Source: a virus
Strand: one strand, 5' to 3'
Length of the DNA stretch: 64,000 nt
Virus record (IMG/VR): IMGVR_UViG_3300033148_003055
Coordinates: 1-64,000 of that record
Part shown: in pieces, positions 187 through 16,713 of the stretch
Numbering within the stretch: the first letter of the stretch is position 1
Layout: each line of letters starts with the position of its first letter
Made by a program: the position numbers and the translations under genes
The notes under the pieces: generated by a model
The model's database searches: none
What the model was told of the DNA's origin: nothing
Seen by the model: the letters and a program-made list of their open reading frames with translations, nothing else

Positions 187-705
187 TTACGCGCCCGCTT
201 CCGGAGCGTAGAGCGCCCAGAGCATCGCGCCGTTGCCCTTGGTCGTGTCGAGCAGCCCCTCGAACGTCACAGCAACCAGGCGGTCGCCGTCGTTCGTGTA
301 GGAGATGTCCCCGACCTCGCGGACGTAGGCCTTCTTGATAACCGTGTCCTCGGTCGAGCCCGTCGCGCCGTATGGCCGCAGGATGAGCTCCTCGGACTCG
401 GTGGACATCAGCTGGCCGGGCTCGCCGCCCGCATGGATGTAGTCACCGGTCCCCTTGGTGGCCTCGGGGTACGCGATGAGCAGCGTGTCGTAAATCCACT
501 GCGCGATGTTCAGCGTCACCTCGACCTGCATTCCGACGAGGACCTGATCGACGAGGGAGTCGCCGTACTGGTCGACCTTCCTCTCCGCCAGGGTCTTCGT
601 CAGACGGGCCGTCTGCCCCTCTTCCGTGTGACCGAGCGTCACGGTGGCCCACAGGGCCTCCGCCGCACCGATCTTGATCTCGCTCGCAACCTTCGTGATA
701 GCCAT
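187..705 (-). CDS. putative major tail (tube) protein
   Basis: The protein has 172 residues. Its layout matches siphophage tail-tube proteins: an early basic/polar strand segment (AERKVDQYGDSLVDQVLVG), a middle helix with YPEA, and a C-terminal strand (VTFEGLLDTTKGNGAMLW) like the usual VTFEAL.D..K..G ending. Such proteins polymerise into the hexameric tube around the tape measure. The start has a GGGGAAGG ribosome site. It lies downstream of the tape measure gene, the reverse of the usual order, so the call rests on sequence pattern and neighbourhood. Confidence 0.7.
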   Translation of the reverse strand: MAITKVASEIKIGAAEALWATVTLGHTEEGQTARLTKTLAERKVDQYGDSLVDQVLVGMQVEVTLNIAQWIYDTLLIAYPEATKGTGDYIHAGGEPGQLMSTESEELILRPYGATGSTEDTVIKKAYVREVGDISYTNDGDRLVAVTFEGLLDTTKGNGAMLWALYAPEAGA

Positions 706-735
706 TATGGCCTTCCCCTTCTCTCCCCGCCGTCG

Positions 736-1134
736 TCAACCTTCGAGACGTCCGTCCGCGATCATGTCGAGCCTTCGTTCTTCGAGGGCGTCGAGCAAGT
801 CCTTCTTGTGTTCCTCGTCCAGCGCCGGGTTCCTGCGGAGCGAATCGGCGAACTGCGCCGTGACCGCCTTACCGGCCAGGAGAACCCCGGTCATTTTCCA
901 ACGCGCGGCCTTGAGAACGCTCGCCCGCGTGCGCTCCTTGACTTCGCGTTTCCAATCCTCATCCCCAGGCTTCTCACCCTTCTTATCGGTTTCCCGCGTG
1001 CCTCCTTCAAGACGTTTCAACGTCGGCAGAATCAGCACCTTCGACCCGCTCTGGGCGTCGGCGGTGTACAGTGCCGTCTCTATGAGTCGTTCTGTCTCGA
1101 CGTCCAGCCGGACCTTGATCTCATCCACCTGCAT
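736..1134 (-). CDS. hypothetical tail-region protein
   Basis: A 132-residue, charged, mostly helical protein (KRLEGGTRETDKKGEK; LDALEERRLDMIADGR) with no recognisable domain. It sits between a chaperone-like gene and the major tail protein gene, so it could be the second part of a tail-assembly-chaperone pair. I saw no clear slippery site joining the two. The ribosome site is weak (GGGGGTCGAG), consistent with coupling to the gene 21 bases upstream. Confidence 0.6.
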   Translation of the reverse strand: MQVDEIKVRLDVETERLIETALYTADAQSGSKVLILPTLKRLEGGTRETDKKGEKPGDEDWKREVKERTRASVLKAARWKMTGVLLAGKAVTAQFADSLRRNPALDEEHKKDLLDALEERRLDMIADGRLEG

Positions 1135-1154
1135 CTCGTCGAGCTCGACCCCCG

Positions 1155-1520
1155 TTACTCGGAGTCGTTGGCAGGCTCGCCAGGCTCCGCGAGGGTCACC
1201 GCTCCCCCCAACGTCTGTACCACCTCGGACATAGAGGCCGTGTGCTTCACGAACCAGGCCATCGCCTCCTTGAATATCTCGAGGGCCTGGTCGAAGTCTA
1301 GCTCGTTCAACTCGTCGGCGTCTAGTCCCCGCAAACAGATGAGCGAAAGCTTCTCGAGGGCGTCAAAGACTGACACCGGGTTTTCGTCGTCCCCGTCCTT
1401 CATGCCCATGAAGGCGCCCATGCACGCCTTTGACTCACCATACGTCGGCTTGCTATCCCGAAGTTCAACCGTCCCATCAAACCCTTCGATGTCCAGTGCC
1501 CTATACCTCTTCTTTCCCAT
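1155..1520 (-). CDS. tail assembly chaperone-like protein
   Basis: I place the start at the ATG at 1518-1520 (MGKKRYRAL) because AAAGGAGGAG sits just upstream; a longer frame to 1547 would lack this and overlap the tape measure. The 121-residue product has the strand-rich N-terminus and acidic helical C-terminus (FDALEKLSLICLRGLDADEL) seen in gpG-type chaperones, which keep the tape measure soluble during tail assembly. It follows the tape measure stop by about 10 bases. The family assignment is tentative. Confidence 0.55.
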   Translation of the reverse strand: MGKKRYRALDIEGFDGTVELRDSKPTYGESKACMGAFMGMKDGDDENPVSVFDALEKLSLICLRGLDADELNELDFDQALEIFKEAMAWFVKHTASMSEVVQTLGGAVTLAEPGEPANDSE

Positions 1521-1530
1521 CTCTCCTCCT

Positions 1531-3534
1531 TTAAGGACTCTCGCCACCGGCGGGCTCAGAATGCCCTCGGCGCTCCGTCCTTTTGACCTTGGCGTTAAGA
1601 CCCTCGTCTGCGGTCACGATGATGTCCAGCTTCACCCGCGCGTCGCTCAATGTGTCGGTCGTATTCTTGTCCGCGGTGGCAGTTTCGAGAGCTAATGCCG
1701 GGAGACTGAATGGGTTCGCGGCCCCGAGAGCACCAACAGCAGTCTCCCCGATAAACTGCCCCGCCGCCGGAAGTCCCGGTATTGATCTTGAAGCATCTCC
1801 GATCGCTGCGGCTGTGTTGATTGCAGTACGGCCCGCGCCTACGATGCCTTGACCAACTTTCAGGAACGCCATGATGAGCGGGTTCTTTTTCAGCTCGGCG
1901 ACAATGTGGTCGATAACGAGCTTGAACCCCGATTGTATATCACCCACCATCGCGAGAATCTGGTTTGTCACGTACTCGGTCGCGGACTTCCACGCGACCC
2001 GCATTCCAGCCGTGACGATCGCCCATGTGATGTCCCACACCAGCTCGATTCTTTTCGCGAGGTTCCCAACTCCAACGAGCATCGAGGTCATTGCGTCGTT
2101 CCACATGTCCTTGATCTTCACGATGGCCGCGTCCCAGGCCTTGACGATCGCCTTGTAGGCCTCCGTCTCTTTCATAGCATCCATGAAGGCTTTCCAGCGC
2201 GACTTCCCCTTGATGATGCCCATCTCGTACCAGTGCATGAACGTCTCGAACTCGGCGACCGCTATCTGGAAGGCGATCCCAGCTTGCTTCTCGAATGATT
2301 TGAATCCGACGATCCAATCGTCGCGGAATTGCGTCATAGCCTCAGAGTTTTCGGACACGAAATCCGTTACCGCGTCGATTGCGCTACCGATCGCATCGGC
2401 TACCGCGATAACTGCAGGCTCCAGGAACTCACCAATGCTAAGGCCCATGTCCTTGATTCTAGCTGTGACCAGAGAGAAACGGAAACTAGCTGTCTTACTC
2501 ATCTTTTCAAAGGCGACGTTCGTGGCGTTCGTGGCGTTGCTCACGGATTCAAGAACACGAGCGAACTCGGCCGCCTGGGTCCCGGCGAGGGGGGCGATGG
2601 CGGTGAAAGCGCGGACGTTTCCGAACAGTTTGGTCAGAAGTTCTGCAGCGTTGCTCTTCCCCTTGATCGCTTTAGAGATACTTGCGATTGCCCCGGCCAG
2701 ACCCCCCTTCCCTTTGAGAGCACTTCCAGAGAGGTTGATCCCAAGCTCCTTCGCGGCCTCCTTCGCGTCGTCGGTCGGCTGGATGAATGCAGTGATGGCG
2801 GCTCTTAGTCCCGTCGCTGCTCTGGCCGCCGGAATCTCGCCCTTTGTGAGGGTTGCCATTGCGGCGGAGATTTCCTCGAAGCTGACACCGGCGAGAGCGG
2901 CCGAAGCGTTGACTACACCGAGGGTGTCCGCGAGAATTGGAAGCGTAACCGACCCCTCCTTCACGGTTTGGAAGAGAATGTCTGAGATGTTCTCGGCCTC
3001 GTCCATTTCAAAGTTGTAGGCGTTGAGTGTTCCGATGATTGCTTTCATGGCTGTGTTGACGTCCGTGACCCCAGCGACCGCCGCCTTGTTGGCGACCTCA
3101 AGCACAAACAACGCTTCGCCCGAAGCGTCGGCACCGGACGAAAGGGCAGTATAAAGAGCCACAGCTTCCGTAATTTGGTCCCCCCCAAACTGGAGAGACA
3201 GGTCCCGCACACCCCGAGTGAGCTTCCCCATATCCACGACCGCCGTGTTGACAAGAGTCGACACCTCGGCCATCGCCTTCCCGAAATTCGCAGAGAACTT
3301 CACAGAGAATGCCGCCGCGGCGGTCCCGGCGGCGATAAGGGCGGCAGCGATCTTAAGGGCGACCTTGGCAATCGCCTTGCCCATCCTCACCGCGGCCCTC
3401 GCAACGGCCAGGAATCTTCCAGCCGTTGCGGACGCGAAGGCCTTCAGCCCCTTCGTGACAACCTTGATCCCGGCCATCACGCTGGTCGTGTTCGCGGTGA
3501 ACTCTACCCTCAGCTCTTTGATCGTCTCGGCCAT
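1531..3534 (-). CDS. tail tape measure protein (TP901 type)
   Basis: A 667-residue protein of the phage tail tape measure family. It fixes tail length inside the tube and helps genome passage at infection. The N-terminus is followed by an Ala-rich hydrophobic segment near residues 45-80. The TP901 core (FGKAMAEVSTLVN through SFEEISAAMATLTKG) covers about residues 85-330, with hydrophobic helices towards the C-terminus. From the general length relation, 667 residues suggests a tail near 100 nm. The preceding gene stops at 3536. Confidence 0.92.
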   Translation of the reverse strand: MAETIKELRVEFTANTTSVMAGIKVVTKGLKAFASATAGRFLAVARAAVRMGKAIAKVALKIAAALIAAGTAAAAFSVKFSANFGKAMAEVSTLVNTAVVDMGKLTRGVRDLSLQFGGDQITEAVALYTALSSGADASGEALFVLEVANKAAVAGVTDVNTAMKAIIGTLNAYNFEMDEAENISDILFQTVKEGSVTLPILADTLGVVNASAALAGVSFEEISAAMATLTKGEIPAARAATGLRAAITAFIQPTDDAKEAAKELGINLSGSALKGKGGLAGAIASISKAIKGKSNAAELLTKLFGNVRAFTAIAPLAGTQAAEFARVLESVSNATNATNVAFEKMSKTASFRFSLVTARIKDMGLSIGEFLEPAVIAVADAIGSAIDAVTDFVSENSEAMTQFRDDWIVGFKSFEKQAGIAFQIAVAEFETFMHWYEMGIIKGKSRWKAFMDAMKETEAYKAIVKAWDAAIVKIKDMWNDAMTSMLVGVGNLAKRIELVWDITWAIVTAGMRVAWKSATEYVTNQILAMVGDIQSGFKLVIDHIVAELKKNPLIMAFLKVGQGIVGAGRTAINTAAAIGDASRSIPGLPAAGQFIGETAVGALGAANPFSLPALALETATADKNTTDTLSDARVKLDIIVTADEGLNAKVKRTERRGHSEPAGGESP

Positions 3535-3535
3535 C

Positions 3536-5938
3536 TTACTTCTTCCTCGCCTTCATGACGAAGGTCATCTGGAGCTGCCACAGCTCCTTGCCGGTCGACG
3601 TGTTCTCGATGCCGGTGCGCTGGGGACCGAACGAGTCGGACCTGCGGGAGCTCTGCACGCGCCAGGCGGTCGTGTCCATGTCGCGGTTGTCGTAGAGAAC
3701 GGCGTCGACCTGCTCCTGAATCTGGGCGATGACGTCCGGGGAGTAGCCCCAGACGTTGACCTCAAGCGTGACGTTCCGCGAGTCCGCCGACGTGTCGAGG
3801 GCCGTGTCCGGGTCCTCGAGGATCGAGAGCGTGATCTGGGGGACGGCCCTGGAGTTCGGCTGGAACCCCCGGCGGATGTCCGCGCTGGAGTTGAGCAGGG
3901 CGACGAGGGTCGAGTTGGCCTGGAGTTCGTCGATGACGTAGGCGAGTATCTCGTTCGCCGTATCGTCCACCCCGAAGAAGAGCCACTTGATGTCCGCGAT
4001 GCCCCACGAGTCGCTCGACTTGTTCCGCACCTCGACGAGGCCGAATACCCCGAGCGCCGGGAGCGTGAGGGTCTCGTCGCCGTCGGCCACGAGCGGGTCG
4101 CCCGAGTTGTCGACGAGGGACGTGCCGTCCTTGTCCTTGATGTAGACGTAGCCTTCGGTGACGACGCCGGTGACCGGGATCGTGACGACGGTGCTGGCGT
4201 GAGTGATCGCGCCAATGGTCGGGGTGCCAGGCACCGAGACGGCGAAGGAGTCGAACGTCTGGTCCAGCGTGTATTCGTTCCCGTCCTCGTCCTCGACGGT
4301 CGCCCTGACGTAGTAACCGTTGCCTGCCGCCGGGGCGGTGAAGGTCGCGGCGCTGCCCTTAATCGTCGCCCACGTCTTCTGGGAGTCCTTGGTGTAGCTG
4401 ACGTTCGCCTGCGGAATGGGCGTGGACTGCAGCACGTCGGACGAGTTGAACAGCTCCACCTTCGTGGGGACCGTCGTCATGGCGTTCTTGCGGGACGTGA
4501 CGCCGCCGACTATCGTGATCGTCGCGCCTGGTGCCACTTTGCCAGCATCGGCGCCCGAGACCTGCAGGCGCAGGTCGATGTCCGGAGCGCCCTCGTCGAC
4601 GTAGGACGGGGCGAACTCCGTACCGTCTGCGCCGTAGGTGCCCGAGCCCGTTTTCGTGACCGCCTCTAGTGCGTCGGTGCGCGTGCCGAGCACGCCGTTG
4701 ATTGTGACACCAGCCTTGACATCGCCTGCCGTGACCGCCGACGCTGGAGCGACAGTGTCGGGATCGTTGTATCCCATGTAGACCTTGCCCGGCGTGCCGT
4801 CGCGCTTGCGGAGGGCTCCGGTGGCGTCAACGTAAGTTCGCGGCACGCCCTCAAAGACGCAGGCAACGCTTGTGTTGAGTAGCGTGAAGTCGTCTGTGCC
4901 GCGACTGGTGAAGACGGCATCCGTAAGGCCGGTGACCGGACCACCACCCGGCGCTGTTGCATCCTTGGAGCCGTTGTTGCGGCAGAAGAGCGCCTGCGAC
5001 TGGGTGTAATCTGTCGTGTTGTCGATGGCGAGACAGCCAATGCACACGCCGTCAGTCGTATTCCCGTGGAAGCCGGTAGTGCAATCAACGGCCGTGCAAT
5101 GAACGGCGCTGGCCGCATTGCCGCCCTGCCAGAAGCCGGTGGTGCAGTCGTAGGCGAGGCAATTCTCGGGCCCGGCGCCGTCGCTGCTAAACGTCATGCC
5201 GTGGCCATTGACATTAACAACGATGCACCGGAAGGCGCGGCAATGCTGGCTGTCCAACCCAACGCCAACCGTCGCCCCCGACAGGCCGTCAATCGTGAAG
5301 TTGTGTATCTCCCCAGCGCGGTCACTGAATGCAACAACGGACCCGGTGTTTTTAGATATAGTAATGCCTTGGTCGGCAACCATTCCGTAGACCATGAGCT
5401 GCTTGCCGATGCTCACGGCCTCGTTGTAGTTGTTGGATGCGCCCCCAGCGAACACCTGAATCGCGTCACCGTCACTGGCGGCAGAGACCGCAGCAGAGAT
5501 GGTCGCGTGCGTTTTTGAAGTGCCGACGGTCTCGGTGTCATTCATGCGCGTATTGTGAGCGTCCGAGTGGGCCTCAGCATCAGCCGTGCTTAGAAGTTCC
5601 GTGGCGGCCTTGTCGTGCTTCCGAACGTTCTGGCAGAGGCCGGAAGCCACCACCCGCTGTTTGGCCGCGCAGTCTGCGGCCACGAGCCGCGTGGTGGGCA
5701 CCCTCTTGGGGCAGTCGCCACTCTCATCCCAGCACCAGAAGTTATCCTCCTTCAACTCCGACAGCGGCCCCTCGCGTATTTCGAATATCTTGCCATTGCC
5801 CTCGCCGAAGGGGTGCATGTCGAAGTGACCCTTCGACTTCGTGATGACGTGGATATACGCCTTCTCGCCCGTAGTCGGGTCGATGCGCACGTCAAAGACG
5901 GCGTGGACGATAGGGTCTAGGACGACAGGGTCAAGCAT
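3536..5938 (-). CDS. beta-helix protein fused to tail-terminator-like domain
   Basis: An 800-residue protein with at least three parts. Residues about 130-340 look like a right-handed beta-helix (pectin-lyase-like fold) with repeating short strands and many Asn, Gly and Cys (CLAYDCTTGF, CTAVDCTTGF). About 340-650 looks like Ig-like/bacterial-surface modules. The last ~140 residues (NEILAYVIDELQANSTLVAL ... LWQLQMTFVMKARKK) resemble a tail terminator/minor tail U-type domain. It precedes the tape measure, where a tail terminator is expected. The fusion suggests a tail-anchored decoration or adhesin. The ribosome site is GGAG before the ATG at 5938. Confidence 0.7.
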   Translation of the reverse strand: MLDPVVLDPIVHAVFDVRIDPTTGEKAYIHVITKSKGHFDMHPFGEGNGKIFEIREGPLSELKEDNFWCWDESGDCPKRVPTTRLVAADCAAKQRVVASGLCQNVRKHDKAATELLSTADAEAHSDAHNTRMNDTETVGTSKTHATISAAVSAASDGDAIQVFAGGASNNYNEAVSIGKQLMVYGMVADQGITISKNTGSVVAFSDRAGEIHNFTIDGLSGATVGVGLDSQHCRAFRCIVVNVNGHGMTFSSDGAGPENCLAYDCTTGFWQGGNAASAVHCTAVDCTTGFHGNTTDGVCIGCLAIDNTTDYTQSQALFCRNNGSKDATAPGGGPVTGLTDAVFTSRGTDDFTLLNTSVACVFEGVPRTYVDATGALRKRDGTPGKVYMGYNDPDTVAPASAVTAGDVKAGVTINGVLGTRTDALEAVTKTGSGTYGADGTEFAPSYVDEGAPDIDLRLQVSGADAGKVAPGATITIVGGVTSRKNAMTTVPTKVELFNSSDVLQSTPIPQANVSYTKDSQKTWATIKGSAATFTAPAAGNGYYVRATVEDEDGNEYTLDQTFDSFAVSVPGTPTIGAITHASTVVTIPVTGVVTEGYVYIKDKDGTSLVDNSGDPLVADGDETLTLPALGVFGLVEVRNKSSDSWGIADIKWLFFGVDDTANEILAYVIDELQANSTLVALLNSSADIRRGFQPNSRAVPQITLSILEDPDTALDTSADSRNVTLEVNVWGYSPDVIAQIQEQVDAVLYDNRDMDTTAWRVQSSRRSDSFGPQRTGIENTSTGKELWQLQMTFVMKARKK

Positions 5939-5990: not shown

Positions 5991-6743
5991 TCAGCCGTTG
6001 TCGTCCCTGGCGGCGACGCGGAGAATCTCCAGTTCGTCCTCGGACAGGGTCGAGCCTGCGAGGGCGACCTTGATCTTCGCCTTCACCTCGTCGCTCGCCT
6101 TCCCGTCGTCGTCGACGGCGGCACCTGCGGACGTGACCTTGAAGGCGGTCTTCCACTTCTTCACCTCGGCGACGAGACGGCCGATGGTGCCGATGATCTT
6201 GATGGCTCCACCTCCGGTCAGCAACGTGCCGATTGTGGCGATGACCACCGCGAGGACCCCAGGCTTATCCCCGCCTTCGGCCTCTACGCGGTCTTCCACC
6301 GCCTTCTCGAATGCCTTGGTTTCGGCCATGACCTCGTCGACAGCAGCCTTCGCCTCAACGGCGTCGGTAGCAGCCGCGTCGGCCATCTTCTTCAGCTCCG
6401 GTAGGGACTCCTCAAGGTCTTCCTTCATCCCGGTCAGCTTGCCCCAGAGGGCGAGACCGTCGTTGTAATCGACGCTCCCGTCCTGGACGGCTGCGGCGAG
6501 GGAGGCGATCTGACTGATCACGACCTTCGTCCGGTTGGCAAGCTCGGCGACTGCCCCCGCGAGCGCGCGGGAGTTCGCCGAGGCCTCGATGGATTCGGTT
6601 GCGGCGTTGTCGAGCTTGTCGGTCAGCTCGTCCATCCGCACCTTCTCCTCTGGGGTGAGCTTTACCTGGAAGAGGTCGCACCCCGGCGCGAAGACCCCGA
6701 GGGCCGCCGCCAGTACCACCAGTACCATACTCCTCGCTCTCAT
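5991..6743 (-). CDS. predicted lipoprotein with internal hydrophobic segment
   Basis: Starting at the ATG at 6741-6743 (GGAGGG ribosome site) the product has 250 residues. The N-terminal signal MRARSMVLVVLAAALGVF is followed by a lipobox ending APGC, so the mature protein should be lipid-anchored. A long Ala/Glu/Lys coiled-coil region follows. A second hydrophobic stretch lies near residues 165-190 (VLAVVIATIGTLLTGGGAI). It directly follows a small single-membrane-span gene (stop and start in TGAGATG), so the pair may act together in lysis (spanin-like) or envelope passage. The function is not proven. Confidence 0.7.
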   Translation of the reverse strand: MRARSMVLVVLAAALGVFAPGCDLFQVKLTPEEKVRMDELTDKLDNAATESIEASANSRALAGAVAELANRTKVVISQIASLAAAVQDGSVDYNDGLALWGKLTGMKEDLEESLPELKKMADAAATDAVEAKAAVDEVMAETKAFEKAVEDRVEAEGGDKPGVLAVVIATIGTLLTGGGAIKIIGTIGRLVAEVKKWKTAFKVTSAGAAVDDDGKASDEVKAKIKVALAGSTLSEDELEILRVAARDDNG

Positions 6744-6744
6744 C

Positions 6745-7020
6745 TCAGTTCCCTCCAACTTTCCCCTCGATCCTGCCGAGGGAGCCTACCATCTGGCTCT
6801 GCACATTGACCACACCCTTCAGGACGCGGGCCGTTTCTCCCTGCGTGTCCGCCAGGTGGGTCAGGTGGTTGTTGATCAACAGCTTCGCTTCGTCGATCTG
6901 GTCGTCGCTACGCTTGAGCGTTCGCCGGAGCATCCACCAGAACCCGGCCCCCAGGACCACGATGAGGACCGCGGGCAGCCCGAACCTTTCTACCAGCGTC
7001 AGTGTCGACTCCGGATTCAT
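6745..7020 (-). CDS. small membrane protein with coiled coil
   Basis: A 91-residue protein with one N-terminal membrane segment (residues about 15-31, GLPAVLIVVLGAGFWWML), then a charged helical tail (DDQIDEAKLLINNHLTHL...). This resembles inner-membrane spanins or membrane-anchored coiled-coil accessory proteins. It overlaps the ribosome site of the lipoprotein gene, suggesting they work as a pair. No enzymatic motif is visible. Confidence 0.7.
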   Translation of the reverse strand: MNPESTLTLVERFGLPAVLIVVLGAGFWWMLRRTLKRSDDQIDEAKLLINNHLTHLADTQGETARVLKGVVNVQSQMVGSLGRIEGKVGGN

Positions 7021-7024
7021 GATG

Positions 7025-7519
7025 TTAGACCTTTCTCATTCGTCGGATGTGTCCCGGCTGCACGTCGAGCTTCCATGCCGGCTGGAGCCAGGGCATAGTC
7101 TGCTTCGCGAGGCCGCCCCCGCCGACCCCGGCTTCGCCACGGTCCTTCTTCGCGTCCCACATCGTAGTCGGGAACTCGGCCGTCCCGACGTTGATCCGCT
7201 TATTGGCACCCTGTATTTCCGTGAACTGAGCCTTCCACCCCTGCGGCGTCCCGACGAACCCGATGAGCTTGCGACCTCGGCGGAGCATCCCGGAGAATAT
7301 GCTGTTCTTCATGTGGCCGCCGCGGCCTTTGACCCCGGCACCAGTCCGCTTCTTCCCACGACCCTTTCTGATGTTCGCCGACACCGGCACGCGACGCTTC
7401 GCCGCAGCGTCGAGTTCCTGCACCGAGCGGAACATCTCCTGGGCAACGCGCTTCTCGAGCTTCGTCCCCTCCTTCTCGAGCCACTTGATGGTCTTGCGGG
7501 TCTCTGACGCCGTAGACAT
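7025..7519 (-). CDS. HK97 gp10-like neck/tail-completion protein
   Basis: The true start is the ATG at 7517-7519 (MSTASETRK), with GGAGGAG upstream and a TAATG overlap with the previous gene. The 164-residue product has the pattern of HK97 gp10-family morphogenesis proteins: a basic N-terminal helix, a PVxxNIRKGRGKKR-type segment, a buried GFVGTPQGW strand and a Trp-rich end. These proteins join tail to connector. A longer frame reaching 7726 is non-homologous upstream. Confidence 0.72.
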   Translation of the reverse strand: MSTASETRKTIKWLEKEGTKLEKRVAQEMFRSVQELDAAAKRRVPVSANIRKGRGKKRTGAGVKGRGGHMKNSIFSGMLRRGRKLIGFVGTPQGWKAQFTEIQGANKRINVGTAEFPTTMWDAKKDRGEAGVGGGGLAKQTMPWLQPAWKLDVQPGHIRRMRKV

Positions 7520-7878
7520 TACGCGCTCCTCCGGAGGCCGACGATGAGGAACTTGTGACGTTCGGCAGGGTCCACGACGTCGGTGACGCGGTAGTCCTTG
7601 GAGTTGATCGTGACCTTGTCCGCCATCCCGTTCGCTTCCTCCAGGTCTGGGCGGATGTCCGTCCCGTAGGGCACCTTGAGGACTGCGGTGGCGTCGAGGG
7701 TGAGGCCCTGCGCCTCCAGCGCCCACGAGGTCCCCGCCGGTTCCAGGAACCCGTACACGGTCGTCCCGGATGCGTCGAAGCCGACGGTCGTGAGCTCGCC
7801 CGTGGCCGAGACCACGTCGTTGTCGGTGTTGCGGTGCTTGATCACGACGGCCTTGTTCATGAGGGCGAAGAGGCTCAT
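7519..7878 (-). CDS. head-closure / head-tail joining protein
   Basis: Starting at the ATG at 7876-7878 (MSLFALMNK) gives 119 residues. The small beta-barrel-like protein (VVIKHRNTDNDVV ... VTINSKDYRVTDVVDPAER) fits head-closure stopper proteins of the SPP1 gp16 type, which seal the portal after packaging. It lies between the gp6-like connector and the gp10-like gene, the standard order. The assignment is by pattern, size and position. Confidence 0.65.
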   Translation of the reverse strand: MSLFALMNKAVVIKHRNTDNDVVSATGELTTVGFDASGTTVYGFLEPAGTSWALEAQGLTLDATAVLKVPYGTDIRPDLEEANGMADKVTINSKDYRVTDVVDPAERHKFLIVGLRRSA

Positions 7879-7880
7879 CG

Positions 7881-8474
7881 TTACAGCTCCCAGTGCTTGT
7901 ACTGGGCGAGCCAGCCGATCGCGTCCTCTGGGATGTCGCCCATGAGATATTCGGCGGAGTACTGGGATACCTTCATCGATGCGAATCCCTCGGCGCCCTC
8001 CTGAGACTTGCGGTAGACATACGCGCACCAAATCTTCGCGGCCATCTTCAGGGCCGCCGGAATGTTCGCGACCAGAGCACCGAGGCCCCCGGTGTAGACG
8101 ACCTTGAGGGACCGGATGCCGTTTGGGAACTTCGACCCGTAACGCTCAAGGATTCCCTTCACGTCGTCAATCAGGTAGTCGGTCGTGGCGAGCGCCGTCG
8201 CCCCAGCGTGATCCCGCGGGACGGAAGTGGACTCGGTGATCGTGACGTCCTTGGTGAGGTCGACAGGCCAGCGGTTGAGGTTGACTTTACTGGCCCCCTC
8301 GGCATCGAAGTGCTCGGTGAGTTCCGCCTTCAGGAACGTCCGGTTGCAGTACAGCTCGATGGCCTCGGAGACGGCGGAGACGATCGGGGTCATGCGGCCG
8401 GTGTCGCTGTCAGCGACCACCCCCGTGTAGACCTCGAGTTCCGCGACGGTGATCAGCTCGACGGATGCAGCCAT
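7881..8474 (-). CDS. HK97 gp6-like head-tail connector
   Basis: A 197-residue adaptor with the typical N-terminal helices (VSAVSEAIELYCNRTFLKAE), the RWPVDLTKDVTIT segment, and a C-terminal helix (LKMAAKIWCAYVYRKSQEG). The family forms the adaptor ring below the portal. The ribosome site GAGGAGG lies upstream of the ATG at 8474. Its start overlaps the end of a glycosyltransferase gene by 22 bases, so the sugar island is physically coupled to the structural operon. Confidence 0.82.
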   Translation of the reverse strand: MAASVELITVAELEVYTGVVADSDTGRMTPIVSAVSEAIELYCNRTFLKAELTEHFDAEGASKVNLNRWPVDLTKDVTITESTSVPRDHAGATALATTDYLIDDVKGILERYGSKFPNGIRSLKVVYTGGLGALVANIPAALKMAAKIWCAYVYRKSQEGAEGFASMKVSQYSAEYLMGDIPEDAIGWLAQYKHWEL

Positions 8475-9490
8475 GTCCGGTCAACCTCCTCGAGGATTTC
8501 GCGCAGGCGCTTCCCGGTGTGCTCCCACGTGAATCCCGACCTTATCCTAGCCGCCGCGAGCTGGCCCCTGGCGACTGCCTGCTTGTAGTGCTGGAAGACC
8601 CAGATAAGCCGGTCGCAGATGCTTCCGACGTCTGGGCTCGCTACCAACGCTTCACCGCAGAGGTCCTCGTAGTTGGGCCAATCTTCCGGCAGGTTCGGAC
8701 TTATATCGGTCCGGACGGCCTCGTATTTCAAGGGAAATGCTACCCGCCCGTCGCAGTAGTCCGTCATCGCCGACCACGGCGTGAACAGGCACGGCAGTCC
8801 CGCCGCCATCGCCTCGGCCAGCGTGAGGCCGAACCCCTCCCCACCGGACGGGAAGACGAAGGCGTGGGCGTCGTGGTAGACTTGCACAAGCTCGTCAAGT
8901 GGGAGCTTCCTGGAGTCGACGATGAGCCGGGCGTTGGAGCCGAGGCGCTTCGTCTCGACGCCCTTCTCTGCACCTCCGGGAAGCGTCGTCTTCAGGTAGA
9001 AGTCGAAGGGCCAGTCCTGCAGCATGTGGGCCGCCGCGAGGAAGGCTGGGTACCCCTTGCGCTGGTTCGGCGCCCCGAGCCAGAGCACCCGGAACCGCTC
9101 GTTCTTTGCGAGCTTCCGCTTCTTTTTCCTGGCGAACCGGTCGTAGTGAACGCCGAGAGGGCAGACGTAGATCGGCGTCGACTCCCCCACGATCTCACGG
9201 TACGTCGGGACGAGGTAGGAGGCGGTCGAGATGATGAAGTCGGCCTGCTTGAGGCACCGCATCGCTGGCATGGCCGTCGGAGAGTCCCAGGCCGTGTAGA
9301 TGCCGTGGACGGTCCCGGTGTCCTGGGGGAAGAAGGAAAGCGGCGACTGGACGGTCAAGGTCATCTCCGCCCGCGGGTCTATCACACCACCGGCCCGCTC
9401 AAGGGCGGCCTTGGACTCGCGGTTGTGGACGGCGAAGCCGAGGTGGTTCCCCTCGGCGTCCTCCGGCCGCTCGACCCAGTTCACTCGCAT
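8453..9490 (-). CDS. GT4-type glycosyltransferase
   Basis: A 345-residue GT-B fold glycosyltransferase. The C-terminal half carries the retaining GT4 signature FPSGGEGFGLTLAEAMAAG, including the EX7E motif that binds the nucleotide sugar. An FRVLWLGAPNQRKGYPAFL strand-loop marks the start of the second Rossmann domain. I use the ATG at 9488-9490 with GGAG upstream rather than a GTG at 9502. It is the last gene of the sugar island and overlaps the connector gene. Substrate unknown. Confidence 0.85.
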   Translation of the reverse strand: MRVNWVERPEDAEGNHLGFAVHNRESKAALERAGGVIDPRAEMTLTVQSPLSFFPQDTGTVHGIYTAWDSPTAMPAMRCLKQADFIISTASYLVPTYREIVGESTPIYVCPLGVHYDRFARKKKRKLAKNERFRVLWLGAPNQRKGYPAFLAAAHMLQDWPFDFYLKTTLPGGAEKGVETKRLGSNARLIVDSRKLPLDELVQVYHDAHAFVFPSGGEGFGLTLAEAMAAGLPCLFTPWSAMTDYCDGRVAFPLKYEAVRTDISPNLPEDWPNYEDLCGEALVASPDVGSICDRLIWVFQHYKQAVARGQLAAARIRSGFTWEHTGKRLREILEEVDRTWLHPSS

Positions 9491-10065
9491 GGTGCGCTCC
9501 ACATCCAGTACCCCCGACTGCTGGGGATGTAGACCCCCGGGACGTCCTGGGCAAGGCAGGCCTTAGTGACCCCCGGCTCCGTCCCCATGTCGTGGACGAG
9601 AACGATCTCCCGGGCAACTCGGCGTGCTTCACGAATGTCGGCGAGGGCGGACTCGTAACTGTGATTGGCGTCGACGATTACGAGGCCCCAGGTCTTGTCC
9701 TTCTGTGCCTTGAGGTATTCAAGCGAGTCGCACGTCTTGAAGGCCATGATCTCCGGGGAGGAACCGTCGCGGACGGTGTTCTCTCTCGGGACCTTCCGCC
9801 CGTCCGACCGTCCCCCGTACTCGTGACTCCAGTCGTCGACCCCGCAGTACTTCCCCCGGGCGTTCTCGGTCAACGCCCGACAGATCACGACAGCGCCGAT
9901 ACCGTCGGACACCCCGAGCTCGAGGACGGTGTAAGGCTTCATGGCCCGAACGAGAGCGTAAACGAACAGGCGCTCCACCGGCCAGTCGAGCGGGGACTTC
10001 CCAATGACGGACTCGATATCGTTCTGGCCGTCGCCCTTGCGACGTTCGGCGTTTTGACGGTCCAC
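9481..10065 (-). CDS. class I SAM methyltransferase (CmcI/Methyltransf_24-like)
   Basis: The start is the GTG at 10063-10065, preceded by GGAGG; upstream in-frame sequence is low-complexity and overlaps another gene. The 194-residue product has motif I VLELGVSDGIGAVV, an acidic motif KYCGVDDW, LVIVDANHSYESALADI and IVLVHDMG. This suits small O- or N-methyltransferases that modify sugars or secondary metabolites. It overlaps the GT4 gene by 10 bases. Confidence 0.75.
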   Translation of the reverse strand: MDRQNAERRKGDGQNDIESVIGKSPLDWPVERLFVYALVRAMKPYTVLELGVSDGIGAVVICRALTENARGKYCGVDDWSHEYGGRSDGRKVPRENTVRDGSSPEIMAFKTCDSLEYLKAQKDKTWGLVIVDANHSYESALADIREARRVAREIVLVHDMGTEPGVTKACLAQDVPGVYIPSSRGYWMWSAPCE

Positions 10066-10066
10066 G

Positions 10067-10612
10067 TCAGGCCTCCGCTCTCCGTAGAACGGCAGTTGTG
10101 CGGAAGACTTCGACGAGCTCGAAGTCGGTCTCGGCGATGAACTCCTCGACGGCCTCCCCAACGCCCTTGAGGTGATCGAGTTCCCAACGGCCGTAGTCGT
10201 GGACGCACAGGGTCCCGTCTTCCTTGAGTAGCCAGGCGACCCGGCGACAGTCCGCCAGGCAGGCGTCGTGGCTGTGGTCCCCATCGACGAGGACGAAGTC
10301 GAAGAGCTCCCGCCGGACGTACCGGTCCAACTCTTTGAGAGTTCCGTGGAAGAGATTCATGTTCTGGCGCCCGTTTCCGTTTGCGTCCCAGAGCTCCGCG
10401 ACCCCGGCTCCCGTCCCCTCTCCCTTACGGAACGGGTCGACCGAGAGGAAGTTCGCCCCCGGTCGACGATCAGCCCAGTACGCACACGTCGCCCCGTCGA
10501 GGGTTCCGATTTCGAGGACGTTCCCCTGTTCTGGCAGGACGGTGAGCATGAACTCCCGCTCCGTCTTGTGCATCGCGCTCCGGCCCTGGTAGCCGTCCAT
10601 CTTGTCGCTCAT
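10067..10612 (-). CDS. class I SAM methyltransferase
   Basis: With the ATG at 10610-10612 the protein has 181 residues. It shows motif I VLEIGTLDGATCAYW, NFLSVDPF, the FDFVLVDGDHSHDACLADC catalytic/metal-type segment and GTLCVHDYGRW. It is clearly paralogous to the methyltransferases at 14212-14754 and 16192-16713, suggesting local duplication. The likely role is methylating a glycan made by the neighbouring transferases; this is inferred from context only. Confidence 0.78.
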   Translation of the reverse strand: MSDKMDGYQGRSAMHKTEREFMLTVLPEQGNVLEIGTLDGATCAYWADRRPGANFLSVDPFRKGEGTGAGVAELWDANGNGRQNMNLFHGTLKELDRYVRRELFDFVLVDGDHSHDACLADCRRVAWLLKEDGTLCVHDYGRWELDHLKGVGEAVEEFIAETDFELVEVFRTTAVLRRAEA

Positions 10613-11328
10613 CTTGAACCCCTCTCTCCCTTGTCGATGCCGCACCGTTTACAGATCGGAATATCCCGCCGCCCGGACATGAGGTCGCGGTAGACCTTCT
10701 TTGCCCGAGGACTATCAACGAAGGCGCCCAGACCGTCCTTGAGGTTACCAAAGGTGATCGACGTCGCCCAATCGAAGCAGCACAGAGCGATGTCGCCCGT
10801 GCACCGGACCACGACCGCACCGAACGGAGAGTCACACTTCGAGTCCGGGCCGAGGTCGATGAGGTCGCGGCCGTACCAGTTGAGTCTGTCATCGAGTCCG
10901 TGCCTGGCCACTCGAAGGTCGACCCCTTCTGGCGCCGTCAGCCCCCGTAGTCGCGCCCCTTCAAGGTCTGTGTACGCGGTCACTTCGACCTGTTTCACAT
11001 TCGGGCGCCTACACAGGTCGTCGAGGAGTTGCTGACTCAGGTTCCAGCCGTTGGTCATGATGAAGACACGGGCGTCCGGGCACGCACAGTCCGCGAAGTC
11101 GATCAGGCTGAACAGACGCGGGTCGAGCATCGGCTCGCAGTAGTTGTGGAAGGCCAGACGCCCGTTGAAGTCGTGATCCCCAAGCTCGACCAGCGCGAGC
11201 TCGACCCAGAGTTCTGGGAGGTGCCTGACCCCGTCGGCGTGGTCGTGGAGTGGGCACTTCGCGTGCTGGTCGGCGAAGTTGCAAACGTTCGACAGCTCGA
11301 AGGTGACACGCTTGATTTTATCCCACAT
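10609..11328 (-). CDS. radical SAM/SPASM-like protein with altered cluster motif
   Basis: The start is the ATG at 11326-11328 (GGAGGTG upstream); 239 residues. The fold markers of radical SAM/SPASM proteins are present: an N-terminal strand then Cys, the YCEPMLDPRLF loop in place of GGEP, FIMTNGW, and a C-terminal SPASM segment (CTGDIALCCFDW ... GNLKDG ... CKRCG). The usual CX3CX2C iron-sulfur motif is absent; instead VCNFADQHAKCP gives C-X5-H-X2-C. The same pattern occurs in the second copy at 13520-14215. Substrate unknown. Confidence 0.72.
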   Translation of the reverse strand: MWDKIKRVTFELSNVCNFADQHAKCPLHDHADGVRHLPELWVELALVELGDHDFNGRLAFHNYCEPMLDPRLFSLIDFADCACPDARVFIMTNGWNLSQQLLDDLCRRPNVKQVEVTAYTDLEGARLRGLTAPEGVDLRVARHGLDDRLNWYGRDLIDLGPDSKCDSPFGAVVVRCTGDIALCCFDWATSITFGNLKDGLGAFVDSPRAKKVYRDLMSGRRDIPICKRCGIDKGERGSR

Positions 11329-12100
11329 GACCGCACCTCCGGAGGATGCTATCTCTAGACGCCTCGTCAAGAAGCGGTCCGATCTTCGCAGCGATCTTCG
11401 GGTTCTTCCACATGCTAGTCGTGTTCTTCTCGTGCACCACGACCACGAACTGACCACCAGGGAGGTCGACCCGGTTAGCGCATTCCCTGAACCGGTTGTG
11501 GGGCAGGCAGAAGTTCCACCGTTCCTCGTAACCGTCCGGGTCGTCGAGGTAGTCGCGCGCGTACGTCTTCGCGAAGAATGGCGGAGGGCACGAGCCCGGG
11601 GTGTAGGTGCACATCTCCCCCGTCGCCGAGTTGTATATGTACCCGGCTCGGAAGAGCTGGATGAGCCCGGGCGAGACGTCCTTGAGTTCGATATGCTTGC
11701 GGGCGGACTTGAGGTACATGTCGTCGGAGTCGACGCAAAGGAACGTGATCGCCTCGGCATCGTGTCTTTCAAGAAACTCGAACACAGCCTCCCGCGCCGG
11801 GCCCTTTCCATACTTCTCGGAGTCTCGGGCGGGGTGGAATATCGGGATCGCTTTGAAGTCCTTGAGGACGTCAAGTACCGGCTTGGCGATACCCTTGCTC
11901 TCCTCTGGGATGCCCGCCCAGATGCTCTTACCGTGGGCAAGGCGGCAAAGTGACGGCAGCGTAAACTTACGGAGGACCTCCGCGCGCTCCGCCCACCACT
12001 TCGGCTTCCCGGAACCGCGCCGCCAGTACCACCCGCCCACCTCGGTCTCGTGGTGGAGGAGCTCGCCGAACGGAACCCAGATTCGCAGCGCCGACTTCAT
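11318..12100 (-). CDS. GT-A glycosyltransferase, rhamnosyltransferase-like
   Basis: Starts at the ATG at 12098-12100 with GAGGAGA upstream; 260 residues. It has the features of the putative rhamnosyltransferase family: WWAERAEVLRKFTLPSL near the N-terminus, a FLCVDSDDMY acidic DxD-type motif for metal and nucleotide-sugar binding, and PHNRFRECANRVDLPGGQF near the end. The gene at 12738-13523 shares these blocks. It overlaps its neighbours by 4-11 bases. The sugar donor cannot be told from sequence. Confidence 0.68.
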   Translation of the reverse strand: MKSALRIWVPFGELLHHETEVGGWYWRRGSGKPKWWAERAEVLRKFTLPSLCRLAHGKSIWAGIPEESKGIAKPVLDVLKDFKAIPIFHPARDSEKYGKGPAREAVFEFLERHDAEAITFLCVDSDDMYLKSARKHIELKDVSPGLIQLFRAGYIYNSATGEMCTYTPGSCPPPFFAKTYARDYLDDPDGYEERWNFCLPHNRFRECANRVDLPGGQFVVVVHEKNTTSMWKNPKIAAKIGPLLDEASRDSILRRCGHVG

Positions 12101-12741
12101 CGCACAGTCTCCTCGAAGAAGTCGAAGTTCCTGAGGAGCTCGTAGCCGCTCTTCTGAAGTTGGACCACGAGACTCTTCAGGAGGCCGTGCAGTCCGTTGA
12201 CCCGAACCTGCCAACCGTGAGAGACGACGTGGACTGGAAGCCCTTCCGTCATTGCCGTCATCGTGATCTCGCCGTCGCTCCTCCGTTGGATGATCTCCGT
12301 CACCGGGAGAAGGAGCGGGTTGTCCGGGGCTTCGACCTTTCGGTAGTCGCCTCGGATGCAGGTCCGGGCGTACTTCATCCCGCAGCCCTGAACGTACGCC
12401 GCGCTTCTTGGGCAGAACTTCCCGGCCGGGTAGGCGAAGCAGTTCACGTCGTGGATCGGGAAGAAGGTCTGGAGCTCCCTGCGGGCGCGGTGGATTTCGT
12501 CGCCGAGTTCCTCTGGTCCAAGGTCGGGCACCCAGCGATGGGTCCGGGTGTGGTTCCCGACTTCGTGACCGTCGTAGAGTCGGCAGATTTCCTCGCGGTG
12601 CATCCCATCGTAGACGGAGGGCAGCAGTAACGCGGGACAGAGGTAGAACGTCGCCGGGATCTCCATCTTGTCAAAGAGTCGGATGACATCGATGTCCCCC
12701 GCCCCTCCGTCGTCGAAGCTGAACGTGGCGATCTTCTTCAT
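12097..12741 (-). CDS. polysaccharide deacetylase (NodB/CE4 family)
   Basis: A 214-residue carbohydrate esterase family 4 protein from the ATG at 12739-12741 (ATGA overlap with the upstream gene). The NodB motifs are clear: TFSFDDGG (motif 1, catalytic Asp), GNHTRTH (motif 2, metal His pair) and CFAYPAGKF (motif 3). The family removes N- or O-acetyl groups from sugars such as GlcNAc. No signal peptide is seen, so it likely acts in the cytoplasm on an intermediate. Confidence 0.85.
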   Translation of the reverse strand: MKKIATFSFDDGGAGDIDVIRLFDKMEIPATFYLCPALLLPSVYDGMHREEICRLYDGHEVGNHTRTHRWVPDLGPEELGDEIHRARRELQTFFPIHDVNCFAYPAGKFCPRSAAYVQGCGMKYARTCIRGDYRKVEAPDNPLLLPVTEIIQRRSDGEITMTAMTEGLPVHVVSHGWQVRVNGLHGLLKSLVVQLQKSGYELLRNFDFFEETVR

Positions 12742-13523
12742 GACTGTGTCCAATCCTTCACCCCGAAGACGCCAAGCACCCGTGCGCGCTCCGCACTGTT
12801 GGTGATCTCCCGGCGGAGCTTCTTCTTGGTGTGGCTGTTCTCCCAACTCGACACAACGTTCTCGCCGTGGATGAGGTAGCAGAACTGGCCACCGGACATG
12901 ACTATGACCCTCGGGCAGTCCCGGACCTTGTGATGCGGACCCTGCAATCCCCACTTGTCTCGGTAGGCCCACCACGCCTCGTCCGATTCGAAGGCCTCCC
13001 CCGAGAACATCATCGCCAGGAACGGCGGGGTCGAGTCGGTGGAGTCGTACTCGAAGAGGCGACCGTCGACCCCAAGGATGTAGCCCTCCTCGAAGACGAG
13101 ACACAGGCCACCACCGGGGGCGATCGCGTCGAAAGATCGGAAGGCGTACCGCCCATACATATCATCGGAGTCGAGGTTGATCAGCACGAGATGGTCGCAC
13201 CACCCCCTGTAGTTCTCGCGGATCGCCTCCGCGCCGCCAAACATGCCCTCGCTCGGCTCGGTGTAGACGCACTGACCTCCTGCCGCCTCGATGGCCTGGC
13301 GGACCTCGGCGGAGTTCTCGTCGTCCTGACGCAGGAACAGACCGTACAGGTCGAAGTCCTGGAGCGACTGGTTCGCCAAGCTCGGGAGCGTAAACCGCTG
13401 GAGGATGTCCAGCCTGCTCACCCACCATTCGCGTCGTGCCATGTTCTTCCGGTAACGCCACGCATTCTTGACGCCGGAGTCGTCGCGGTTGAATCTCATG
13501 ATGACGGCTAGTCGCTTCTTCAC
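12738..13523 (-). CDS. GT-A glycosyltransferase, rhamnosyltransferase-like
   Basis: The start is the GTG at 13521-13523 (GAGGG upstream, GTGA overlap); 261 residues beginning MKKRLAVIMRFNRDD. It carries WWVSRLDILQRFTLPSLANQ, LVLINLDSDDMYGRYAF as the DxD-type site, and VRDCPRVIVMSGGQF. These blocks match the gene at 11318-12100, so the two are diverged paralogs flanking the deacetylase. It probably adds a sugar in the same pathway; donor and acceptor unknown. Confidence 0.7.
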   Translation of the reverse strand: MKKRLAVIMRFNRDDSGVKNAWRYRKNMARREWWVSRLDILQRFTLPSLANQSLQDFDLYGLFLRQDDENSAEVRQAIEAAGGQCVYTEPSEGMFGGAEAIRENYRGWCDHLVLINLDSDDMYGRYAFRSFDAIAPGGGLCLVFEEGYILGVDGRLFEYDSTDSTPPFLAMMFSGEAFESDEAWWAYRDKWGLQGPHHKVRDCPRVIVMSGGQFCYLIHGENVVSSWENSHTKKKLRREITNSAERARVLGVFGVKDWTQS

Positions 13524-14215
13524 TTCCAAACCCTCGCACACTTGCGGCAGACATCGTAGCACCGTTTCCCGTTTTCCAGGTTCTCCACTGCCTTGAGGCG
13601 CCGCTCGCTTTCGAGAATCTCGGCAAGCGATTGATCGTTCAGGTCCCCGAGTATGCACGTATGTTTCCAGTCCCGGCAGCAGAGCCCGACTTCCCCCGTG
13701 TGCCAGATCGTCAGGTTCTTCTTCGGCGCGTGACACGGCATCGACAGGTCGACCGGGTCTCGGTCGTACATTTGCAATCGCGAGTCGAGCCGCTCTTCCC
13801 TGACCGAGTACCTGGCGCCGCCCTTGAGAGTCCGGAGCCTGGCGGCCTCTTCTGGGGTGTACCCGTTCGTGATAACGCGGGCGCCGTAAATCTGCGTAAG
13901 CCTTGTGAGGAGGTACTGATCGAGGCAGCGCCCGTTCGTGATGACGTACGGTGTGGCTTTGATCCGCATGTTGACACGGAGAAACTCGAGGAACTCGAAC
14001 AGCCTTGGGTCTTCCAGAGGCTCGTTGTACACCGAGAAGATCACCTCGCCGGTGTATCCATGATCAGCGAAGTGGTCAAGAACCCGGTAGACGATCTTGT
14101 CGTCCAGGTACTTCGTCTCGGTGACGAGGCTCGCCGGGCACCTCGGGTGCATGTGCGCGTAGCTGCACCGGTTGTTGATTTCAAGCTGGACCTGATGGAT
14201 GCCTTCGATACTCAC
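13520..14215 (-). CDS. radical SAM/SPASM-like protein with altered cluster motif
   Basis: Starts at the GTG at 14213-14215 (GAGGAGG upstream, GTGA overlap); 231 residues. Like its paralog at 10609-11328 it has ELxxN-C then C-X5-H-X2-C (RCSYAHMHPRCP) instead of CX3CX2C, a YNEPLEDPRLF loop, YVITNGRCL and a SPASM-like end (TGEVGLCCRDW ... LGDLNDQ ... CRKCARVW). It may be a sugar- or peptide-modifying enzyme using SAM, or an inactive derivative. The conserved His in both copies argues for retained metal binding. Confidence 0.72.
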   Translation of the reverse strand: MSIEGIHQVQLEINNRCSYAHMHPRCPASLVTETKYLDDKIVYRVLDHFADHGYTGEVIFSVYNEPLEDPRLFEFLEFLRVNMRIKATPYVITNGRCLDQYLLTRLTQIYGARVITNGYTPEEAARLRTLKGGARYSVREERLDSRLQMYDRDPVDLSMPCHAPKKNLTIWHTGEVGLCCRDWKHTCILGDLNDQSLAEILESERRLKAVENLENGKRCYDVCRKCARVWK

Positions 14216-14754
14216 GACGCCCTCCTCATCACGGCCATGTGATCGACTCTGGCCGTCATCTGCCAAACGCTATCCCCAACGAACTCGTCCACCGCCTTCG
14301 TCACGCGCTCCCCTGGGATGCGCCCGTAGTCGTGAGCGAGGAGGACCCCGCCCTTCTTGATGACGGCCGAGCAGACCCGAAGGTCGAGCAGGCAGTTCTC
14401 GTAGTTGTGGCACCCGTCCACGAGGACGACGTCGAAGAGGTTGTCGACGATCATCGCGAGGTCGACCGACGTCCCGACGTGAAGCCGCATGTTCGGTTGC
14501 GCGTTCCTGGACCAGATCACCTCATCGCCCTCTACCCCGTTGTCCGCGTCCCCGGTAATGAACGGATCGACGCAAAGGAGCCGAGCGTTCGGACGGGCCA
14601 TCGAGACCATCGCCGCGGTGACCCCGTGGTACGTTCCAATTTCGAGGAGGCGGCCGTCGTCCGGGAGGGCAGTGATGATCGTGGACAGCTCCCGCTGTGA
14701 CACGAGGGCCTTGCCCTGCAGGTCCGGGTGGGTGAGTCCGAGTGGCGTTCCCAT
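14212..14754 (-). CDS. class I SAM methyltransferase
   Basis: From the ATG at 14752-14754 (TAATG overlap) the protein has 180 residues. Motifs: LLEIGTYHGVTAAMVSMA, LLCVDPF, FDV-VLVDGCHNYENCLLDL and VLLAHDYGRI. The block order and HDYGR ending match the genes at 10067 and 16192, so this is one of a small paralog set. It sits between the sulfotransferase and a radical SAM gene. Confidence 0.78.
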   Translation of the reverse strand: MGTPLGLTHPDLQGKALVSQRELSTIITALPDDGRLLEIGTYHGVTAAMVSMARPNARLLCVDPFITGDADNGVEGDEVIWSRNAQPNMRLHVGTSVDLAMIVDNLFDVVLVDGCHNYENCLLDLRVCSAVIKKGGVLLAHDYGRIPGERVTKAVDEFVGDSVWQMTARVDHMAVMRRAS

Positions 14755-16195: not shown

Positions 16196-16713
16196 GACTT
16201 ACTCCTTTCGAGAACTGCAAGGTTGTCGCAGCGTTCCTTGATCGTGAACCCGGTCCGCATTGTGAAGTCGTAGACGGCCCGCTCGACCGGCTCACGGTCG
16301 TAGTCGTGAACGGCGATGAGACCCTTCGGCTTGACAAGGCTCTTGGCGTAGTGGAGGTCCGTCGTCGCCCCGTTGAAGGTGTGGTCGCCGTCGACGACTA
16401 TCAGGTCGAACGGGCTCCCGTCCCAGACCTTCGCGACGTACCCTTGGATGGTTCCCTTGAAGAGCATCATCCCGGTCACCGCGTTGTCGTGCCACGCCTT
16501 CTCGCACGCCGGTCCGGCCTCCCCGACGAACGGGTCGACGCAGGCGATGTAGATCGAGGGGTGATGGTCCTTGACCTGGCAGGCGGTCACGCCGCACCAC
16601 GTCCCGATCTCCAGCATCGAGCCGACGTCGGGTGTGCTCTGAACGAGGCACGCCAGCTCGGCGCACGACATTTGGGAGGAACCCTTGTAACCTTCGGGCC
16701 AGCGAGTGGTCAT
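16192..16713 (-). CDS. class I SAM methyltransferase
   Basis: From the ATG at 16711-16713 (ATGA overlap) there are 173 residues. It has MLEIGTWCGVTACQV, IACVDPF, FDLIVVDGDHTFNGATTDL and LIAVHDYDREPVERA. It is a close paralog of the methyltransferases at 10067 and 14212. Together with 9481 and 15563 it makes five methyltransferase genes in 7 kb. Confidence 0.78.
   Translation of the reverse strand: MTTRWPEGYKGSSQMSCAELACLVQSTPDVGSMLEIGTWCGVTACQVKDHHPSIYIACVDPFVGEAGPACEKAWHDNAVTGMMLFKGTIQGYVAKVWDGSPFDLIVVDGDHTFNGATTDLHYAKSLVKPKGLIAVHDYDREPVERAVYDFTMRTGFTIKERCDNLAVLERSKS

What the first reader, a model, noticed from the sequence alone, without database searches (positions are those of the whole stretch)
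3536..5938. Tail-terminator-like domain fused to a beta-helix
The C-terminus looks like a tail terminator, but ~500 residues of beta-helix and Ig-like modules come first. A terminator ring with attached beta-helices would display fibres at the neck, perhaps whiskers for adhesion or a glycan-active domain.
Basis: inference. Interest (0 to 1): 0.55.

Follow-up and report, generated by a model that had tools for sequence, protein, structure and literature searches.

The report
Tail-terminator fused to beta-helix neck appendage
In an uncultured tailed phage, the protein that caps the tail where it joins the head carries a large extra beta-helix and two Ig-like domains at its front end, so the phage probably displays an ordinary type of surface-binding module from its neck in an unusual way, by fusing it to an essential ring protein.

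Summary
ORF 3536-5938 (minus, 800 aa) exists as described. Its last ~145 residues are a tail-terminator domain: two terminator families match it (phrog_78 E=0.0011, phrog_123 E=0.034), a single-sequence AlphaFold2 model shows the terminator order of elements, the 17 best Foldseek PDB rows are all phage tail/neck proteins, and its best tblastn match (E=0.7) lies in the terminator gene of Bordetella phage PHB09. In front lie a beta-helix with 21-residue coils (about 134-325), two Ig/FN3-like domains (about 451-655) and 133 unassigned residues. GC3 jumps from 0.75 to 0.95 near residue 477, suggesting that the front part was acquired by recombination. Neck display is inference: terminators form hexameric rings at the head-tail joint, so six copies would carry the module there. 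No enzyme signature was found. Neck-borne beta-helices are known (936-phage NPS, PMC6669499) and so are larger terminators; an N-terminal fusion of this kind did not appear in my searches. New variant of a known kind, moderate interest. No orthologue was found, so everything rests on one metagenomic genome.

The parts
3536..5938 (-). whole fusion gene, 800 aa
   Evidence: single open frame, ATG start
5540..5938 (-). residues 1-133, unassigned N-terminal region with four cysteines (69, 76, 90, 102)
   Evidence: no PHROG or NCBIfam match for the piece; cysteine positions
4964..5539 (-). residues 134-325, right-handed beta-helix with 21-residue coils
   Evidence: period 21; phrog_27126 'neck protein' 1.8e-5; weak WcaM match E 0.016
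4589..4963 (-). residues 326-450, probable C-cap of the beta-helix and linker
   Evidence: position only; no family match; the C-cap reading rests on recalled motifs
4229..4588 (-). residues 451-570, Ig/FN3-like domain 1
   Evidence: strand-rich in low-confidence model; tandem FN3 alignments 470-656 with high rmsd
3974..4228 (-). residues 571-655, Ig/FN3-like domain 2
   Evidence: many Ig/FN3 rows at 571-657, Z 4.7-6.0, rmsd 2.1-4 for single-domain rows
3536..3973 (-). residues 656-800 and stop, tail-terminator domain
   Evidence: phrog_78 and phrog_123; AF2 model and fold searches; nearest homologue PHB09 terminator
4500..4520 (-). GC3 change point at residue 477 (0.75 before, 0.95 after)
   Evidence: likelihood-ratio 56.3, 0 of 500 permutations; second largest of 15 genes tested
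1531..3534 (-). tape-measure protein, starts one base after the target's stop codon
   Evidence: PF10145 1.5e-26; phrog_991 4.5e-38
7881..8474 (-). head-tail adaptor
   Evidence: phrog_442 1.1e-21
7519..8031 (-). head completion/stopper-like protein
   Evidence: PF05521 E 3.4e-4, 21.6 bits, below its 25-bit cut-off
187..705 (-). probable tail tube protein
   Evidence: phrog_2175 5.2e-20; its relatives lie at the tube position in Nican01 and C7Cdelta

Best explanation
The gene encodes the phage's tail terminator with an N-terminal display module. The C-terminal domain forms the hexameric ring that caps the tail tube and docks on the head connector. The N-terminus of a terminator is at the outside of the ring, so the two Ig-like domains act as a short stalk and hold six beta-helices around the neck. 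These bind glycans or other surface polymers of the host weakly, holding the virion near the cell, as proposed for other neck, capsid and tail decorations. The front part was probably joined by recombination near residue 477 to an existing Ig-terminator protein. Shown here: one intact gene, terminator domain, beta-helix repeats, compositional break, position after the head-tail connector genes. Inferred: hexamer, exterior position, binding function.
For: phrog_78 0.0011 and phrog_123 0.034 on the C-terminal piece. AF2 model of residues 646-800 (pLDDT 55.9, pTM 0.53) with order H-H-E-E-H-E-E. Foldseek PDB: first 17 rows all phage tail/neck proteins, best 8iyd lambda tail cap E 6.3e-4. VIA: 6tba_4A Z 10.0, 114 aligned, rmsd 3.2; best unrelated row 7.8. 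The full-length model, made separately, again puts phage neck chains at 648-798 (Z 6.5, 6.3) and lambda tail cap (5.8). Best of 7 tblastn records is PHB09 (E 0.7), inside a 116-aa gene between a neck1/tail-completion gene and the major tail gene, which itself matches phrog_347, 123, 78 and 176, all tail terminators; pairwise E 3e-8 over 59 residues. Beta-helix period 21. Position after adaptor and head-completion genes and one base before the tape-measure gene. GC3 break. Literature: terminators are hexamers with helices at the periphery (R4C); an N-terminal tag on T5 p142 left it soluble while a C-terminal tag was suggested to fold into the lumen.
Against: Sequence matches are weak taken singly, and the models have low confidence (pLDDT 55.9 and 37.8); Foldseek TM-scores are only 0.26-0.37 among those 17 rows. 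hhalign against three putative terminators gave only 34% probability. The next gene is the tape measure, not the tube, so synteny is not canonical. No orthologue was found, so conservation of the fusion is untested. A search of the genome with phrog_78 did not even recover this gene, so it cannot exclude a second, free terminator. An N-terminal tag kept T5 p142 monomeric, which could equally mean that N-terminal additions disturb ring formation.
Confidence: 0.65

Rival explanations
1. The gene makes a terminator, but the N-terminal half is removed or made separately: proteolysis during assembly, or an internal start (GTG at codon 657) yields a free terminator, and only some or no copies carry the appendage.
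For: A GTG codon at 657 lies exactly where a stand-alone terminator would begin. The genome encodes a head protease (phrog_80 on 21350-22894).
Against: No Shine-Dalgarno-like motif from the list tested lies in the 18 bases before codon 657. No cleavage site can be read from sequence.
Confidence: 0.15
2. The protein is a tail fibre or spike whose terminator-like C-terminus is a ring- or tube-related domain used elsewhere in the tail (for example a minor tail protein), and a free terminator exists elsewhere.
For: The same C-terminal piece also matches two minor tail families weakly (phrog_5577 0.068, phrog_1892 0.17). Terminators are related to the tail-tube fold (passage read). The following gene is the tape measure, not the tube.
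Against: Terminator families score better, the nearest homologue is a terminator in its own slot, and the gene follows the connector genes. No other protein among those scanned against PHROGs (27 proteins, this one included) matched a terminator family.
Confidence: 0.12
3. The beta-helix is an active polysaccharide-degrading enzyme (neck depolymerase) rather than a binder.
For: Right-handed beta-helices are common in phage depolymerases (recalled); the NPS beta-helices of 936 phages resemble pectin and alginate enzymes.
Against: No enzyme family above its cut-off in Pfam, NCBIfam or PHROGs; no PDB sequence match to a beta-helix enzyme.
Confidence: 0.08

Closest known systems
Siphophage tail terminators (lambda gpU, SPP1 gp17, T5 p142, R4C gp18, GTA)
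   Same: C-terminal domain: same order of helices and strands, best fold matches, terminator profile matches, position after the head-tail connector genes
   Different: Those are single domains; all 50 BFVD rows listed are 107-223 aa. Here ~655 residues precede the domain. Larger terminators are known, but the example given is a domain that serves the sheath.
Lactococcal neck passage structure (NPS) proteins, groups D and E
   Same: Beta-helix presented at the neck; a phage protein of 500-900 residues; PHROGs names the family that matches the beta-helix part 'neck protein'
   Different: NPS is reported as an N-terminal BppU-like ring domain, then coiled coil, then C-terminal CBM or beta-helix, non-essential and attached to the portal (TP901-1); here the order is reversed and the anchor is the terminator
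Neck fibres of Anabaena phage A-1(L)
   Same: Appendages at the neck ending in a carbohydrate-binding module
   Different: Separate proteins gp82-gp81-gp80 anchored on a pentadecameric gp5, five fibres of ~100 nm; terminator is gp8 and unfused
Ig-decorated connector and tail proteins (R4C adaptor, Douge capsid and tube proteins)
   Same: Ig-like domain attached to a structural ring or shell protein
   Different: No beta-helix; fused to adaptor, capsid or tube, not to the terminator

Membership tests
tail terminator | terminator fold (four-stranded sheet flanked by two helices) | tested here: met
   models of low confidence but two independent models agree
tail terminator | match to terminator sequence families | tested here: met
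   phrog_78 0.0011, phrog_123 0.034; weak; nearest homologue matches four terminator families
tail terminator | gene between neck/tail-completion gene and tail tube gene | tested here: inconclusive
   follows adaptor and head-completion genes, but the next gene is the tape measure and the tube lies further on
tail terminator | hexameric ring capping the tube and joining the head | not testable with these tools
   no complex prediction or virion data
936-type neck passage structure | N-terminal BppU-like collar domain | tested here: inconclusive
   residues 1-133 match no PHROG or NCBIfam family; not folded alone
936-type neck passage structure | order collar domain, coiled coil, C-terminal binding module | tested here: not met
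   C-terminus is a terminator domain and the beta-helix lies in the N-terminal half
right-handed beta-helix | repeating coils of about 20-24 residues | tested here: met
   period 21 in residues 225-325, 0 of 300 shuffles
polysaccharide-degrading beta-helix enzyme | match to an enzyme family or known catalytic residues | tested here: inconclusive
   no family above cut-off; catalytic residues not examined structurally

The most novel reading that the evidence does not exclude
An 'evolved terminator': by analogy with evolved Dit and extended tail-tube proteins, some siphophages turn the terminator ring into an adhesin platform. An Ig-Ig-terminator cassette serves as a dock on which recombination places exchangeable beta-helix modules, giving each virion six neck adhesins covalently tied to an essential ring, with no separate collar protein.
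Probability: 0.45. Interest if true: 0.55.

Novelty: new variant of a known kind. Interest (0 to 1): 0.4.

Why it matters
Decorations for host binding have been described on phage capsids, tubes, adaptors, collars and distal tail proteins. If right, the terminator joins that list: a ring essential for head-tail joining tolerates a ~655-residue N-terminal load. That would explain how neck appendages can be fixed without a collar protein, would give a fixed copy number, and would mean that annotators who expect a ~130-residue terminator may overlook fused ones. It is a modest extension of known decoration schemes, not a new principle.

Tried and rejected
Orthologues: none by peptide-pattern scans of viral contigs with the whole protein (47 stretches, none confirmed), the C-terminus (9, none) and the Ig region (48, none). 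The N-terminal half gave 4 loci of 7 stretches, rejected as chance: the match is 62 residues around the peptide used as pattern, and in the two loci read (L012, L014; L013 and L015 not read) it falls in a 497-aa protein with no sign of this architecture. tblastn on phages: none for the whole protein, 3 records at E about 10 for the beta-helix, 7 records at E 0.7-10 for the C-terminus.

Phage relatives were found only through portal, capsid, terminase and the 953-aa glycosyltransferase (L002, L003, L008); these contigs end before the neck genes, so the fusion could not be checked in them. Tape-measure and capsid scans of viral contigs gave nothing. Two genome-contig scans gave nothing.

Structure: the full-length model is poor (pLDDT 37.8); I use it only for secondary structure and the domain-sized matches, which also includes unrelated Ig/FN3 rows. 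In one search unrelated proteins (ribosomal S6 permutants, antigen-like and pilus proteins) reach Z 6-7.8, so only the rows above 8 stand out. Enzyme reading of the beta-helix: no support. Idea that a sequencing error joined two genes: not supported, as frame and coding composition continue through residue 656, but a single contig cannot exclude it.

Literature: ten searches listed no paper whose title or abstract start describes an N-terminal adhesin fused to a terminator; I read only passages of six papers, and one whole section of one of them, so this is not proof of absence. Other listed papers were seen as search listings only.

Full report
What was examined. The window is the first 64,000 bases of an IMG/VR virus record of 81,558 bases. 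The first 114 bases of the window equal the last 114 of the record, so the record is probably a complete genome with a circular map. The late genes shown here run on the minus strand. Host unknown.

The gene. Window 3536-5938 minus is one open frame of 800 codons. The tape-measure gene (1531-3534) begins one base after its stop codon; tape-measure identity: PF10145 1.5e-26. Upstream lie the head-tail adaptor (7881-8474, phrog_442 1.1e-21), a head-completion-like protein (7519-8031, PF05521 at 21.6 bits, under its 25-bit cut-off), an unassigned basic protein (7025-7726) and two small genes (6745-7020 with a hydrophobic stretch, 5991-6758 with a lipoprotein-like start; my reading of the sequence, no family match). 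So the gene stands between connector genes and tail genes, where a terminator is expected.

C-terminal domain. The last 146 residues alone match phrog_78 (tail terminator, 0.0011) and phrog_123 (tail terminator, 0.034), and more weakly two minor tail families. Within the full-length protein phrog_78 scores 0.016. AlphaFold2 without alignment gave a model of 646-800 with mean pLDDT 55.9, pTM 0.53 and the order helix, helix, strand, strand, helix, strand, strand. The T5 terminator paper describes the family as a four-strand sheet flanked by two helices (section 5). Foldseek against PDB: the first 17 rows are all phage tail or neck proteins, among them the lambda tail cap (8iyd, 6.3e-4), gpU (3fzb), T4 gp15 and Mu; row 18 is ribosomal S6. 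TM-scores are low (0.26-0.37 in those rows), as expected for a rough model. VIA-align 2: best row a chain of the native GTA particle, Z 10.0, 114 residues, rmsd 3.2; then Mu terminator 8.3 and 8.1; best unrelated row 7.8. That the GTA chain is its terminator is my inference; the row does not name it. BFVD: rows named tail completion, tail terminator and DUF3168; all 50 rows shown are 107-223 aa long. In the independent full-length model, 648-798 again aligns best with phage necks (Z 6.5).

Nearest homologue. tblastn of the C-terminus against 50,697 phage records gave 7 records, the best (E 0.7) in Bordetella phage PHB09. On its own that is noise, but the hit lies in a 116-aa gene directly between a tail completion/Neck1-type gene and the major tail subunit, and that protein matches four tail-terminator families, best phrog_347 1.1e-9. 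The pairwise alignment covers 59 residues at 31% identity, E 3e-8 for that single comparison; since the pair was picked from a search, that E-value overstates it. hhalign of the window domain against an alignment of three proteins from the slot before the tube (PHB09, Nican01, C7Cdelta) gave probability 34%; only the PHB09 one is a terminator by PHROGs, the other two are labelled otherwise.

N-terminal parts. Residues 225-325 repeat with a period of 21 (0 of 300 shuffles as good); for 134-330 it is 10 of 300; residues 1-133, 330-440, 440-655 and 656-800 show none. Residues 134-229 match phrog_27126 'neck protein'. A PubMed Central paper on 113 phages of the 936 group reports that two NPS groups end in a beta-helix resembling pectin- and alginate-acting proteins (passages read), so a beta-helix at a phage neck is not new; that phrog_27126 holds such NPS proteins is my guess. 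Residues 451-655 look like two Ig/FN3-like domains, on the weak ground. Residues 1-133 are unassigned.

Mosaic origin. Third-position GC is 0.75 before and 0.95 after residue 477 (likelihood ratio 56.3; 0 of 500 permutations). Of 15 genes tested, five reach 0 of 500, and this one has the second largest ratio. So the break is real but mosaic genes are common here. The break lies inside the stretch I call Ig domain 1, near its start, so the donor junction and the domain border agree only roughly.

How it most likely works. Terminators are hexamers that cap the tube and dock the head. In R4C their helices lie at the periphery. A tag at the N-terminus of T5 p142 left soluble monomer, one at the C-terminus was suggested to fold into the lumen: an N-terminal load is therefore the sterically easier one, although the monomer result also warns that it may hinder ring formation. 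Six beta-helices on Ig stalks around the neck follow if the whole chain enters the virion. For function, the closest evidence is that NPS binding modules and Ig-like domains of Douge bind host cells or glycans; but the A-1(L) neck-fibre module did not bind its host. I therefore rate display at the neck about 0.65 and host binding lower within that.

Known or new. The domain kinds are all known; neck appendages are known; larger terminators are known. The combination, N-terminal beta-helix plus Ig on a terminator, was not found in 50 BFVD rows, 50 PDB rows or ten literature searches. These are limited looks, so the claim of novelty is modest: a new variant of a known kind.

Limits. One genome, no orthologue, low-confidence models, no virion data.

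Noticed in passing
187-5938: Tail gene order on the coding strand is terminator fusion, tape measure, 130 aa, 132 aa, probable tube: the tube and tape measure are in the reverse order of lambda, PHB09 and C7Cdelta.
   Followed up: partly
8453-20042: About 11.6 kb of sugar and modification genes (glycosyltransferases, methyltransferase, sulfotransferase, SPASM radical-SAM-type domains) lies between the capsid gene and the head-tail adaptor; the 953-aa glycosyltransferase next to the capsid gene is shared with contigs L002 and L008.
   Followed up: partly
56957-58576: GC3 jumps from 0.46 to 0.92 at codon 253 and DUF669 begins at 259: the real start is probably far inside this ORF.
   Followed up: no
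29056-30510: Cluster of ten tRNA genes, with an eleventh predicted inside the portal gene at 23711-23784 that is probably a false call.
   Followed up: no
L007 14799-18215: 1138-aa tail fibre/spike-like protein (phrog_4636 4.9e-21) with its own GC3 break at residue 489 (0.82 to 0.64), another mosaic adhesin candidate.
   Followed up: no
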